Positions 3,286-18,039 of a stretch of 32,011 nt of DNA are shown here, one piece after another. The position numbers and the translations under genes are program-made. The stretch spans positions 1 through 32,011 of the forward strand of contig JACQVB010000265.1 in assembly GCA_016209985.1 (NCBI GenBank), written 5' to 3'. Positions within the stretch are counted from its first letter, which is position 1; every line of letters starts with the position of its first letter. The stretch comes from Gemmatimonadota bacterium. Its GTDB lineage: Bacteria > Gemmatimonadota > Gemmatimonadetes > Gemmatimonadales > GWC2-71-9. The notes under the pieces are model-generated. The model had not been told where the DNA came from, made no database searches, and saw only the letters and a program-made list of their open reading frames with translations.

Positions 3286-3624
3286 ATGTCGAATTTGACG
3301 ATCACCGAACTATCCGATGCGACCTTCGCTGAGGAGATCGAGCAACACCCCGGGGTCGCGGTGGTCGATTTCTGGGCCGGCTGGTGCGGTCCTTGTCGAA
3401 TGGTCGCGCCGACGGTAGAAGAACTGGCCGCCGAGTACGCGGGAACAATCAAGGTCGCCAAACTCGACATCGACGCCAATGGGGAGACGCCGCGCCGTTT
3501 CGGAATCCGGTCGATTCCCACGTTGCTGTTCTTTCGGAACGGCAAGGTGATCGACACCGTGGTAGGGGCCCTCCCCAAGGCGGTGCTCGATCAGCGATTC
3601 CGTGCTGCCGCGGATGGGCAGTAG
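3286..3624 (+). CDS. trxA: Thioredoxin
   Basis: A 112-residue cytosolic thioredoxin of normal length. The active site is W-C34-G-P-C37 inside the typical VDFWAGWCGPC strand-loop, and the cis-proline loop appears as RSIPTLLFF. There is no signal peptide. The start has an AAGGAA ribosome-binding site at good spacing. It heads a plus-strand run; the Sec-peroxiredoxin starts 29 bases after its stop. In such a set thioredoxin would be the cytosolic electron donor, directly to AhpD/peroxiredoxin-type proteins and through CcdA to periplasmic partners. Family assignment is very secure; its place at the head of the relay is inferred from gene order. Confidence 0.97.
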   Translation: MSNLTITELSDATFAEEIEQHPGVAVVDFWAGWCGPCRMVAPTVEELAAEYAGTIKVAKLDIDANGETPRRFGIRSIPTLLFFRNGKVIDTVVGALPKAVLDQRFRAAADGQ

Positions 3625-3653: not shown

Positions 3654-4256
3654 ATGCGCACAATCACTCTGGGCGCGGCTCTATCGCTGCTCGCTGTCAC
3701 GACATCGCTGACCGGGCAGCAGCGCCCGACGTTCGGGCCCAAAGACGGCCCGACGGCTCGCCCCGCCGACCTCGATCGGGTCAAGGTCGGTAGTCCGGCT
3801 CCGGAGTTCACGCTCGAGGCGCTGGATGGACCTGCGATCACGCTGTCCGACTACCGCGGCAAGAAGGACGTCATCCTGGTCTTCTATCGGGGCTGGTGGT
3901 GACCCTACTGCACCCGTCAGCTCGGCGAGCTGAGAGCGTTGTTGAGCGATGAGCAGAAGCGAAACACGGAGCTGCTGGTGGTCTCGATCGACCCCAAACC
4001 CGACCTGCAGAAGATGGCGGACAAGATCTCCAGGGAGGATGGCAGGAAACCGGATTTCCCGTTCCTGTCCGATCCGGGACATCGAGTCATCGATCGCTAC
4101 GGGTTGCTGAACCTGGACGATCCGCGCGGGATCCCGCATCCGACGACCTATGTCATCGATCGCCGTGGCATCGTGCGCTGGAAATTCACCGAGGTGAACT
4201 ACAAGGTGAGGCCGACGAACGAGATGATCCTGCACGCTCTTGAAGGACTTCGATGA
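3654..4256 (+). CDS. Selenocysteine-containing secreted peroxiredoxin (UGA-recoded)
   Basis: AhpC/TSA-type peroxiredoxin of 200 residues if TGA 3900-3902 is read as selenocysteine 83. A signal peptide (about residues 1-21) precedes a redoxin fold: VGSPAPEFTLEALDG (about 46-60), then VFYRGWW-U83-P-Y-C86. The TGA sits exactly where peroxiredoxins have the peroxidatic Cys, and C86 gives a UxxC redox motif. The frame stays open and conserved after the TGA (SIDPKPD, FLSDPGHRVIDRYG, GIPHPTTYVIDRRG) and ends at 4256, overlapping the tlpA-like start by ATGA. Read as a stop, the protein would lack its whole active site. A stem-loop at 3917-3933 fits a SECIS element. GGAGG lies 7 bases before ATG 3654. 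Likely role: reduction of peroxides in the periplasm. Three independent cases in the window make sequencing error unlikely. Confidence 0.92.
3917..3933 (+). promoter_or_regulatory. Candidate bacterial SECIS stem-loop for TGA 3900
   Basis: CAGCTC (3918-3923) pairs perfectly with GAGCTG (3927-3932), and T3917-A3933 extends the stem to 7 bp. The apical loop is GGC (3924-3926). There are 21 bases between the TGA and the loop, within the 16-37 range described for bacterial SECIS elements, and the first loop base is the expected G. It lies inside the coding sequence, as bacterial SECIS elements do. SelB binding is inferred. Confidence 0.8.
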
Positions 4257-4789
4257 TCCCGGTAGGGAGATCGCCCTTAGTCGGTGGGTGGACGGCAGTC
4301 GGCGGTCTGCTGATTGCCGCGGCCTGCGGCCGGGTTCCGGAAGCCGTTGGCGTTGGATCCAAGGCTCCGGAGTTTGAAGCGCGCACCATCGCCGCGCCGG
4401 CACAGGCGAAACACCTGGCCGATTATCGTGGCAGCGTAGTACTCCTGAATGTCTGGGCTACCTGGTGTGACCCGTGCCGGGAGGAAATGCCGAGCATCGA
4501 GCGCCTGTACCGGGATTTGGGCCCTCGTGGCCTCACGGTCGTCGCCGTGAGCGTCGACGATGGTGGGGCCGAATCGAGTATCCGGGAATTCGTGAAAGAA
4601 TACGGCCTCACGTTCGAGATCCTGCACGACCCGACCGGCCGCATCATGCAAACCTATCAGATGGTGGGGGTGCCGGGGACGTTCCTGATCGACCGGGGTG
4701 GCATCATCCGGCAAAAGACTTTTCAGGAAGATTGGTCCACGGATCAGAACCGTGCGTCGGTTGGCAAGCTCCTGGTGGACAATCAGTGA
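4253..4789 (+). CDS. TlpA-like thiol-disulfide reductase, probable lipoprotein
   Basis: A 178-residue TlpA/ResA-type thioredoxin-fold protein. Its N-terminus has a hydrophobic stretch ending in IAAAC25-G, a weak lipobox, so it is probably anchored on the periplasmic side. The redox motif is W71-C72-D-P-C75 after VVLLNVWAT, and the cis-proline region is VGVPGTFLIDRGG. The start overlaps the Sec-peroxiredoxin stop (ATGA 4253-4256), which implies that ribosomes read through the upstream TGA. The CcdA gene starts 15 bases after its stop. TlpA-like proteins keep periplasmic dithiols reduced using electrons from CcdA/DsbD, so the neighbouring Sec-peroxiredoxin is the obvious client here. That partnership is inferred. 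Confidence 0.93.
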   Translation: MIPVGRSPLVGGWTAVGGLLIAAACGRVPEAVGVGSKAPEFEARTIAAPAQAKHLADYRGSVVLLNVWATWCDPCREEMPSIERLYRDLGPRGLTVVAVSVDDGGAESSIREFVKEYGLTFEILHDPTGRIMQTYQMVGVPGTFLIDRGGIIRQKTFQEDWSTDQNRASVGKLLVDNQ

Positions 4790-4804
4790 TGCCGGAAGCA
4801 ATCC

Positions 4805-5539
4805 ATGGATAGTGTTCCCGTCCTCGCGGCGGCCGCGGCCGGCGTCCTCTCGTTCCTGTCCCCCTGCGTTCTCCCGCTGGTGCCCGGCTATCTCTCGTTC
4901 GTCTCCGGGCTTTCCTACGCCGATCTCGCCGGCGAGCAATCCGGAACCGGCCCTCGATCCCTGGTGCGGGCGGTGATGCCGAGTGCGGGGGTATTCGTGC
5001 TTGGCTTCACCACGATTTTCGTCGCGATGGGGGCCTCGGCTACGACTCTCGGACGGCTGCTCCTGGGCGGGTCCCCGGTGCTCACCCGGATCGCCGGTGC
5101 CGTCATCATCCTGTTCGGCCTGCACATCATCGGGGTGATCCGCATCCCGCTGCTGTACCGGGAGAAGCGGATTCACACCGAGACCGCACCACGAACCCTG
5201 CTGGGATCCTACGCGGTGGGGATGGCCTTCGCGTTCGGATGGACGCCGTGCATCGGACCCATCCTCGGTGGTGTGCTGACCATGGCCGCCACCCGCGAAA
5301 CCGTGACCCAGGGTATGGCTCTTCTGACCGTCTACTCCCTCGGACTCGGCGTCCCTTTCCTCGTGGCGGCGCTGGGTGTCAATTACGTGCTCGCCTTCAC
5401 CGCCCGCTTCCGGCGGCATGTCCGCACGGTGGAAATAGGCGGGGGAGTCCTGCTGGTCCTGGTCGGACTGCTGGTGTTCGCCGACAAGATGACGTGGCTG
5501 TCGCAGCAGCTCTCGTTTTTCCGTCGATTCGCGATCTGA
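4805..5539 (+). CDS. ccdA: CcdA-type transmembrane thiol electron carrier
   Basis: A 244-residue polytopic membrane protein with about six hydrophobic helices. It carries the two family cysteine motifs: S-P-C-V-L-P-L-V-P-G-Y near residue 20 and W-T-P-C-I-G-P-I-L-G near residue 150. CcdA carries reducing equivalents from cytosolic thioredoxin across the inner membrane to extracytoplasmic thioredoxin-fold proteins, including TlpA/ResA in cytochrome c maturation. No cytochrome c biogenesis gene is nearby here. Instead it lies between a TlpA-like lipoprotein and a Sec-AhpD-like gene, downstream of thioredoxin. The context therefore favours supply of electrons for peroxide defence; this is inference. 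Confidence 0.95.
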   Translation: MDSVPVLAAAAAGVLSFLSPCVLPLVPGYLSFVSGLSYADLAGEQSGTGPRSLVRAVMPSAGVFVLGFTTIFVAMGASATTLGRLLLGGSPVLTRIAGAVIILFGLHIIGVIRIPLLYREKRIHTETAPRTLLGSYAVGMAFAFGWTPCIGPILGGVLTMAATRETVTQGMALLTVYSLGLGVPFLVAALGVNYVLAFTARFRRHVRTVEIGGGVLLVLVGLLVFADKMTWLSQQLSFFRRFAI

Positions 5540-5581
5540 TCTCAATGGGGTCACGGCCCCGTCGGCCAATCCGGAGTCGTC

Positions 5582-6115
5582 ATGGCGTTCATTCGATACT
5601 TGAGCGAAGCGGAACTCGGCGCTGAAGAGCGCGTGCCCGACCGGGATAACATTCTCCAGATCCATGGCGTCCATCCGGCCGTTATGCATCAGCATTACCA
5701 ACTCTACCTGGAGCTGATGCACCGACCCGGCCCGCTGACGCGCCGCCAGCGAGAGACGCTTGCCTTCCGGGTCTCGGTGCTGAACCAATGCCACTATTGA
5801 ATCCACCATCACGGAGCGGGTCTCCGTCGGGTGCTGCGAGCCGATGGCGTGGATCCAACGCGTGAGGAAACCATTCTCTCGGCGTTGCAGGCTCCGCTGC
5901 TCGACGAATCAACTTTCGACCAAGTCGAGCTGTCGCTGTTGCGCTACGCGGAAAAACTCACGCTCGCGCCGGCCGGGGTAGGCGGCGACGACGTGGAGAT
6001 GGTGCGGGCCGCTGGCCTGGACGATCGAGCCATCCATGATGCTTGTGCGATCGTCGCGTACTTTGCATTCGTAAACCGCATCGCGGACGGTTTAGGGGTA
6101 GAACTCGAAGCCTGA
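5582..6115 (+). CDS. Selenocysteine-containing AhpD-like peroxidase-related protein
   Basis: Carboxymuconolactone decarboxylase/AhpD-fold protein of 177 residues if TGA 5798-5800 is read as selenocysteine 73. The family motif is normally N-x-C-x-Y-C-x-x-H-H; here it reads N-Q-C70-H-Y-U73-I-H-H-H, so the second catalytic cysteine is the UGA. The frame continues without another stop, and its end (AYFAFVNRIADGLGVELEA) matches the C-terminus usual for the uncharacterised peroxidase-related AhpD subfamily. GGAG precedes ATG 5582 by 8 bases. A SECIS-like hairpin lies at 5804-5833. AhpD proteins use this dithiol to pass electrons or act on peroxides, and CxxU would make it a selenol relay. It follows ccdA by 42 bases and closes the run. 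There is no signal peptide, so it should be cytosolic. Confidence 0.92.
5804..5833 (+). promoter_or_regulatory. Candidate bacterial SECIS stem-loop for TGA 5798
   Basis: ACGGAG (5811-5816) pairs perfectly with CTCCGT (5822-5827), with a CGGGT loop (5817-5821). A lower 4-bp stem (5804-5807 with 5830-5833) sits below a small internal loop. There are 16 bases between the TGA and the apical loop, and the second loop base is G, both as expected for a bacterial SECIS. The element is within the coding sequence. Confidence 0.82.
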
Positions 6116-17556: not shown

Positions 17557-18039
17557 ATGGAATGCCTTCGCGTGGGGCACCGTTTTCCGTCGCTCACCGC
17601 CCGCGCGGTCGACGGCAGTACGCTGACCATTCCCGACGAGCTGCGCGACCTCACCGCGGTACTCATCTTCTATCGCGGGCACTGGTGAAGCCACTGCCGT
17701 CAGCAGTTGGCTGACTTCCAGCAGCACCACGCAGAGTTCAACGCCCTGGACACCCAGGTCGTGGCATTGTCCGCGGATATGGAAAGCGACGCACGCGAGA
17801 CGGTGGAGAAGCTGGGGCTCGACTTCACGGTCCTGTACGGCCTCGATCCCGAAAGCACCTCGCGCGCTATCGGCTGCTATACCGGCACGCGCGAGGTCCG
17901 GCCGATCATCCAGCCCGCGGGGTTTGTGCTGCGACCCGACGGCAGCATCGCCCACGCCGTGTATTCGAGCGGAAAAGTCGGCCGGTTCACGGCCGGCGAT
18001 GGGTTGACTATCGTGAAGGATCTTAGGAAGAAGCTATGA
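17557..18039 (+). CDS. Selenocysteine-containing peroxiredoxin-like protein (UGA-recoded)
   Basis: AhpC/TSA-type protein of 160 residues if TGA 17686-17688 is selenocysteine 44. ATG 17557 opens MECLRVGHRFPSLTARAVDG, then LIFYRGHW-U44-S-H-C47-RQQLADFQ. The UGA replaces the peroxidatic Cys of the F-Y-R-G-x-W-C motif, giving UxxC. The frame after the TGA is fully redoxin-like (VVALSADMESDARETVEKLG, FTVLYGLD, PAGFVLRPDGSIAHAVYSSG) and ends at 18039, overlapping the next start by ATGA. No signal peptide, so a cytosolic counterpart of the secreted enzyme at 3654. A SECIS-like hairpin lies at 17694-17721. Without read-through only a 43-residue stub would be made. Likely substrate: hydrogen or organic peroxides. 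Confidence 0.92.
17694..17721 (+). promoter_or_regulatory. Candidate bacterial SECIS stem-loop for TGA 17686
   Basis: GTCAGC (17699-17704) pairs perfectly with GCTGAC (17710-17715) around the loop AGTTG (17705-17709). A short lower stem CTG/CAG (17694-17696 with 17719-17721) closes an internal loop. There are 16 bases from TGA to the apical loop and G is the second loop base, the same geometry as at 5811-5827. Confidence 0.82.

What the first reader, a model, noticed from the sequence alone, without database searches (positions are those of the whole stretch)
5582..6115. AhpD-like protein with a C-x-x-U redox motif
TGA 5798-5800 replaces the second cysteine of the AhpD/CMD motif (N-Q-C-H-Y-U-I-H-H-H). 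The C-terminus beyond it is a textbook match to the peroxidase-related AhpD subfamily, and a perfect 6-bp stem follows at the right distance. AhpD-like selenoproteins have been reported from marine metagenomes, so the family supports the reading.
Basis: partly seen in the sequence, partly recalled or inferred. Interest (0 to 1): 0.85.

Follow-up and report, generated by a model that had tools for sequence, protein, structure and literature searches.

The report
Selenocysteine AhpD-like enzyme in redox operon
A stop codon inside this bacterial antioxidant-enzyme gene is really read as selenocysteine at the active site; it is a solid new example of a selenoprotein family known since 2005, and here it sits at the end of a likely redox operon that holds a second selenoprotein.

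Summary
The in-frame TGA at 5798-5800 sits at the second position of a C-x-x-C site in a 177-residue protein that passes the curated TIGR01926 (peroxidase-related) cut-off. Forty-nine other homologues at >=40% identity, from several phyla, carry TGA in exactly this place. A 6-bp stem with a GGG loop follows 13 bases downstream. It is kept through synonymous codon choices that protein constraint cannot explain, and it is absent from the Cys forms. The genome encodes selA, selB, tRNA-Sec and a Sec-type selD. Across Gemmatimonadota, TGA forms go with selB over the cut-off (105 of 110 genomes) and Cys-only forms do not (0 of 11). It is therefore a selenoprotein with very high confidence. The family 'AhpD-like, TIGR01926, CxxU' is already catalogued, so this is a new member of a known kind. 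A third candidate selenoprotein lies at 17557-18039. The likely job is Sec-based peroxide or disulfide reduction; chemistry and electron donor are inferred, not shown.

The parts
5582..6115 (+). AhpD-like (TIGR01926) selenoprotein gene, 177 residues with Sec73; catalytic set Glu58, Cys70, Tyr72, Sec73, His77
   Evidence: E58, C70, Y72, position 73 and H77 invariant in 26 homologues
5798..5800 (+). UGA read as selenocysteine (codon 73)
   Evidence: TGA at the same place in 65 of 81 homologues, Cys codon in the other 16
5811..5827 (+). bacterial SECIS stem-loop ACGGAG-CGGGT-CTCCGT
   Evidence: five inner pairs in 41 of 44 distinct Sec forms, 0 of 16 Cys forms; synonymous codon constraint
5565..5581 (+). 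ribosome binding site region (GGAG at about 5572-5575)
   Evidence: sequence
4805..5539 (+). CcdA/DsbD_TM-like membrane electron carrier
   Evidence: Pfam PF02683 46.1 bits
4253..4789 (+). TlpA/ResA-like thiol-disulfide oxidoreductase (WCDPC), N-terminal signal or lipoprotein-like segment
   Evidence: Pfam PF00578 102 bits, ResA model 112 bits
3654..4256 (+). peroxiredoxin-like selenoprotein, UxxC (FYRGWW-U-PYC), Sec at TGA 3900-3902; N-terminal signal-like segment; its stop TGA 4254-4256 overlaps the tlpA ATG at 4253
   Evidence: homologues at 53-73% identity, TGA in six (five full-length) and TGC in one at the same place; stem TCAGCTC-GGC-GAGCTGA downstream
3286..3624 (+). thioredoxin (WCGPC)
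   Evidence: TIGR01068 120.2 bits, cut-off 96.8

Best explanation
Window 5582-6115 encodes a cytosolic AhpD-like oxidoreductase of the TIGR01926 subfamily in which UGA 5798-5800 is decoded as selenocysteine by SelB, tRNA-Sec and the stem-loop at 5811-5827. Sec73 takes the place of the peroxidatic Cys133 of M. tuberculosis AhpD, Cys70 that of the resolving Cys130, and Glu58, Tyr72 and His77 those of the proton relay Glu118/His132/His137. Proposed cycle: the selenolate attacks a peroxide or a disulfide partner, Cys70 resolves it as a selenenylsulfide, and a dithiol donor (the thioredoxin of the same operon, or a lipoyl protein as for classical AhpD) reduces it. The gene is the last of a probable operon trx - prx-like(U) - tlpA - ccdA - ahpD-like(U) that would supply reducing power inside and, through CcdA, outside the membrane. 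Shown here by sequence: Sec coding, SECIS, machinery, active-site residues, predicted fold, gene order. Inferred: reaction, substrate, electron donor, cellular location, operon transcription.
For: Family: TIGR01926 over cut-off; the AlphaFold model (pLDDT 88, pTM 0.83) matches D. radiodurans AhpD 6k40 best (E 9e-9, TM 0.77). E58, C70, Y72, position 73 and H77 are invariant in 26 homologues, with the spacing of the M. tuberculosis / PA0269 relay (PMC3141380). Sec: TGA or Cys only at this site in 81 homologues; third-position-rich divergence continues past the TGA; SECIS constraint; selA, selB, selC and Sec-type selD in the genome. SelB co-occurrence 105/110 versus 0/11, Fisher p 3e-12 without phylogenetic correction. 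Peroxide role: loss of the D. radiodurans AhpD-like gene raises H2O2 sensitivity and the CxxC matters (PMC8945050). Operon: spacing and ATGA overlap; prx-like(U) next to ahpD-like(U) in G024.
Against: No expression or biochemical data. The full five-gene order was found only in this genome; the partial pairs (prxU-ahpDU in G024, prxU-tlpA in G019 and G031) are few. CMD-fold proteins include members with other chemistry (Bmp8 debrominase, sestrins). The apparent SECIS contrast with Cys forms is partly confounded because the Cys forms differ in protein sequence there; the codon-choice test is the cleaner one. The same-genus genome G001 has no homologue.
Confidence: 0.85

Rival explanations
1. 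A selenoprotein, but its main job is not to destroy peroxide: it works as the dithiol/selenol electron donor (adaptor) for peroxiredoxins, as classical AhpD does for AhpC, possibly for the Prx-like partner.
For: Classical AhpD is an adaptor between lipoyl enzymes and AhpC (PMC8945050); a Prx-like selenoprotein is encoded three genes upstream and directly next to it in G024; PA0269 has only weak H2O2 reductase activity (PMC3141380).
Against: The Prx-like partner has a signal-like N-terminus and the AhpD-like protein has none, so they may be in different compartments; most homologues have no prx neighbour within the flanks held.
Confidence: 0.3
2. The TGA is an ordinary stop and the gene is a recent pseudogene or makes a 72-residue fragment.
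For: TGA is used as a real stop by the neighbouring genes (4254, 4787, 5537, 6113).
Against: The same TGA in 65 homologues of wide divergence, with downstream sequence under codon-position constraint, SECIS codon bias and full Sec machinery.
Confidence: 0.01
3. A selenoenzyme for another reaction of the CMD fold, such as reductive dehalogenation, by analogy with Bmp8 debrominase and with Sec deiodinases.
For: Bmp8 is among the structural matches (E 9e-4, TM 0.75); Sec suits dehalogenation (own knowledge).
Against: Much closer matches are peroxidase-related proteins; nothing seen in the immediate neighbourhood suggests organohalide metabolism.
Confidence: 0.04
4. Assembly or base-call error that turned TGC/TGT into TGA.
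For: The genome is a fragmented assembly (289 contigs).
Against: Independent assemblies of many taxa carry the same TGA.
Confidence: 0.005

Closest known systems
AhpD-like selenoprotein family (TIGR01926 / COG2128, CxxU), Sargasso Sea and GOS 'AhpD-like 1' / 'AhpD-like 2' (PMC1088965, PMC2398784, PMC13188914 table)
   Same: Same curated model, same CxxU motif, Sec at the second position, SECIS with loop G, Cys homologues widespread
   Different: From an uncultured Gemmatimonadota genome; in a multi-gene redox cluster. I did not align it with the published example MCB9421940.1, so the exact subclade match is untested
D. radiodurans AhpD-like DR_1765 (PDB 6k40) and D. geothermalis 2oyo
   Same: Best structural and sequence matches, CxxC active site, peroxide-related phenotype
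   Different: Cys instead of Sec; about 28-31% identity in the structural alignment
M. tuberculosis AhpD (1gu9, 1knc)
   Same: Relay residues Glu, Cys, x, x, Cys, x3, His with identical spacing
   Different: Different chain topology for the motif, low identity (about 15%), Cys enzyme, TIGR00777 model not met
AhpD_rel_CFYUT (NF041238) and YciW-related NF053654 (seleno)proteins
   Same: Related CMD-fold selenoproteins; NF041238 aligns over the core
   Different: NF041238: 60 bits against a cut-off of 175, so not a member; NF053654 was not among the window protein's listed matches
Prx-like / AhpD-like neighbouring selenoprotein genes in one GOS read (PMC2398784)
   Same: Same two kinds of selenoprotein side by side
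   Different: Here three genes apart, with thioredoxin, TlpA and CcdA in the cluster

Membership tests
AhpD-like selenoprotein (TIGR01926, CxxU) | Match to TIGR01926 over the curated cut-off | tested here: met
   91.5 bits vs 81.8
AhpD-like selenoprotein (TIGR01926, CxxU) | In-frame TGA aligned with the second Cys of CxxC in Cys homologues | tested here: met
   65 TGA, 16 Cys codons, nothing else at the site
AhpD-like selenoprotein (TIGR01926, CxxU) | SECIS stem-loop just downstream of the TGA with G in the apical loop | tested here: met
   5811-5827, loop CGGGT; conserved through codon choice
AhpD-like selenoprotein (TIGR01926, CxxU) | Host decodes Sec (selA, selB, selC, selD) | tested here: met
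AhpD-like selenoprotein (TIGR01926, CxxU) | Sec actually present in the protein | not testable with these tools
   needs mass spectrometry or 75Se labelling
Classical AhpD (TIGR00777) | TIGR00777 over cut-off | tested here: not met
   19.9 bits vs 191.95
Classical AhpD (TIGR00777) | Glu-Cys-x-x-Cys-x3-His relay | tested here: met
   E58, C70, U73, H77; a shared mechanism is plausible, membership is not
AhpD_rel_CFYUT (NF041238) | NF041238 over cut-off | tested here: not met
   60.2 vs 175 bits
Peroxidase activity | Reduces peroxides with a thiol donor | not testable with these tools
   inferred from PMC8945050 and PMC3141380

The most novel reading that the evidence does not exclude
The cluster trx - prx-like(UxxC) - tlpA - ccdA - ahpD-like(CxxU) is a dedicated selenium-based redox relay: cytosolic thioredoxin feeds CcdA, CcdA reduces TlpA and the exported seleno-peroxiredoxin outside the membrane, and the seleno-AhpD does the matching job inside.
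Probability: 0.25. Interest if true: 0.5.

Novelty: new member of a known kind. Interest (0 to 1): 0.33.

Why it matters
Standard gene callers end this gene at residue 72, so the active site and the rest of the enzyme are lost from annotation. It adds Gemmatimonadota, where about 70% of sampled genomes have selB over the cut-off, to the lineages rich in AhpD-like selenoproteins; I found no paper in the library that describes this phylum's selenoproteome. The prx-like/ahpD-like cluster gives a concrete, testable hypothesis on who reduces whom, which is open for AhpD-like selenoproteins.

Tried and rejected
Ordinary stop, pseudogene, sequencing error and general TGA reassignment were rejected (conserved TGA, neighbouring genes end with TGA, Sec machinery present). 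Rfam gave no SECIS match; as far as I know it holds no general model of bacterial SECIS elements. The MFE fold of 60 bases from the TGA was not informative for most homologues; a short window was. tlpA and ccdA were not found next to ahpD-like genes in other genomes. My first family scans of the second AhpD copy used the wrong frame and were replaced. An alignment call failed because some loci lie on the minus strand and was redone. Antisense ORF 4277-5812 (-) was taken as a GC-rich artefact because it lies opposite genes with curated family matches; it was not searched itself.

Full report
What was claimed and what is there. The gene 5582-6115 (+) reads through one in-frame TGA at codon 73 to give 177 residues, MAFIRYLSEAE...NQCHYUIHHHGAGLRR...GLGVELEA. 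The coordinates are exact. The protein (Sec written as Cys) matches Pfam CMD (44.6 bits, cut-off 23) and NCBIfam TIGR01926 'peroxidase-related enzyme' over its cut-off (91.5 vs 81.8), and falls short of classical AhpD TIGR00777 and of NF041238.

Comparative test of the TGA. A scan of genome contigs gave relatives from records labelled Acidobacteriota, Planctomycetota, SAR324, Neomarinimicrobiota, Krumholzibacteriia, Gemmatimonadaceae and Myxococcales; nearly all carry TGA at the same place. Searches of relatives and of 395 genomes of the phylum extended this. In 81 aligned homologues the site is TGA in 65 and a Cys codon in 16, with no other state. A tree needs about five Sec/Cys changes, and one Cys form, L080, lies inside the clade with the window. 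Divergence past the TGA is concentrated at third codon positions, as it is before the TGA, so the downstream part is translated.

SECIS. Starting 13 bases from the T of the TGA lies ACGGAG-CGGGT-CTCCGT (5811-5827). The five inner pairs form in 41 of 44 distinct Sec sequences and in 0 of 16 Cys sequences, but the Cys forms also differ in protein there. A cleaner test is codon choice at the conserved Gly-Ala-Gly-Leu-Arg: GGA/GGG 40 of 41 (background 44%), CTC 42 of 44 (42%), CGT 36 of 43 (11%). That is constraint on RNA, not on protein. The p values ignore shared ancestry. L006 has a compensated stem (CGAAG/CTTCG) and L012 a shifted one with the loop GGTCT.

Machinery. The genome (4.64 Mb, 95% complete) has selA (503 bits), selB (363 bits), a tRNA-Sec confirmed by ARAGORN with anticodon TCA, and selD that itself carries a TGA in an SLSHGAG-U-ACK context. 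In the phylum sample, genomes with a TGA form have selB over the cut-off in 105 of 110 cases, genomes with only Cys forms in 0 of 11 (Fisher p 3e-12, no phylogenetic correction; three genomes whose form was not listed or that may hold both were left out; counts were made by hand from the tables).

Organism. The window is contig C233 of G000. G149, of the same order, has a contig with the same length and the same homologue as WYBP01000008.1, labelled Gemmatimonadaceae, so the window is most likely from Gemmatimonadota, order Gemmatimonadales (inference from a record label).

Structure and mechanism. The model from 26 homologues (pLDDT 88, pTM 0.83) is all-helical and matches 6k40 (D. radiodurans AhpD) first, then 2oyo, 3c1l, 2prr, 2pfx. 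Glu58, Cys70, Tyr72, position 73 and His77 are invariant and have the spacing of Glu118, Cys130, His132, Cys133, His137 of M. tuberculosis AhpD and of Glu36, Cys48, Tyr50, Cys51, His55 of PA0269 (PMC3141380). The D. radiodurans homologue protects against H2O2 and needs its CxxC (PMC8945050). The best reading is a selenolate that attacks peroxide or a disulfide, resolved by Cys70. Peroxidase versus adaptor is not settled.

Neighbourhood. Upstream on the same strand lie thioredoxin (3286-3624; TIGR01068 120 bits), a peroxiredoxin-like gene with TGA 3900-3902 in FYRGWW-U-PYC (3654-4256), a TlpA/ResA-like protein (4253-4789; overlaps the prx stop by ATGA), a CcdA-like protein (4805-5539), then the AhpD-like gene after 42 bases. 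Homologues of the prx-like gene in relatives carry TGA at the same place in six cases, one of them with an incomplete upstream part (L113), and one has TGC; a stem of the type CAGCTC-GGC-GAGCTG follows in the Sec forms and is degraded in the Cys form. In G024 prx-like(U) and ahpD-like(U) are direct neighbours on one strand; in G019 and G031 prx-like and tlpA are neighbours. So the cluster is partly conserved. Common transcription is inferred from spacing; signal peptides were judged by eye, not predicted with a tool.

Known or new. AhpD-like CxxU selenoproteins were described from the Sargasso Sea (27 sequences) and GOS (299 and 70 sequences), and a 2026 review lists 'AhpD-like protein, TIGR01926, CxxU' (PMC1088965, PMC2398784, PMC13188914). 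GOS also noted one read with neighbouring Prx-like 1 and AhpD-like 2 genes. The finding is therefore real, and it is a new member of a known kind. The added value is the operon context and the phylum-wide Sec/Cys pattern.

Noticed in passing
window 3654-4256, TGA 3900-3902: Second selenoprotein gene: peroxiredoxin-like UxxC protein with signal-like N-terminus; TGA conserved in homologues of relatives; SECIS stem downstream. Ordinary ORF lists miss it.
   Followed up: yes
window 17557-18039, TGA 17686-17688: Third candidate selenoprotein: AhpC/TSA-like protein with FYRGHW-U-SHC (PF00578 71.9 bits).
   Followed up: partly
L086 2038-2514 (-) = G000:C266:6537-7013: A second AhpD-like protein of the same genome with TGA at the second active-site position (CRYU-I-R-A-H), TIGR01926 140 bits, about 34% identical to the window protein.
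   Followed up: partly
L030 (G000:C114:56746-57675): selD of this genome is itself a Sec form (SLSHGAGUACK).
   Followed up: yes
Gemmatimonadota sample: selB over the cut-off in 282 of 395 genomes; several AhpD-like selenoprotein subclades (HHGAGLR, AHAHDLR, SHAEFLR, GAHG, LASHTAL types) in the phylum. No paper on this phylum's selenoproteome was found in the library.
   Followed up: partly
L080 (G164:C49): A Cys form nested inside the Sec clade, with the SECIS stem broken, in a genome whose selB match (E 4.9e-56) looks too weak to pass the cut-off: a likely Sec-to-Cys change.
   Followed up: partly
L013: Closest relative by identity (81% over the first 58 residues) but its contig ends before the TGA, so it says nothing on the codon.
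   Followed up: yes
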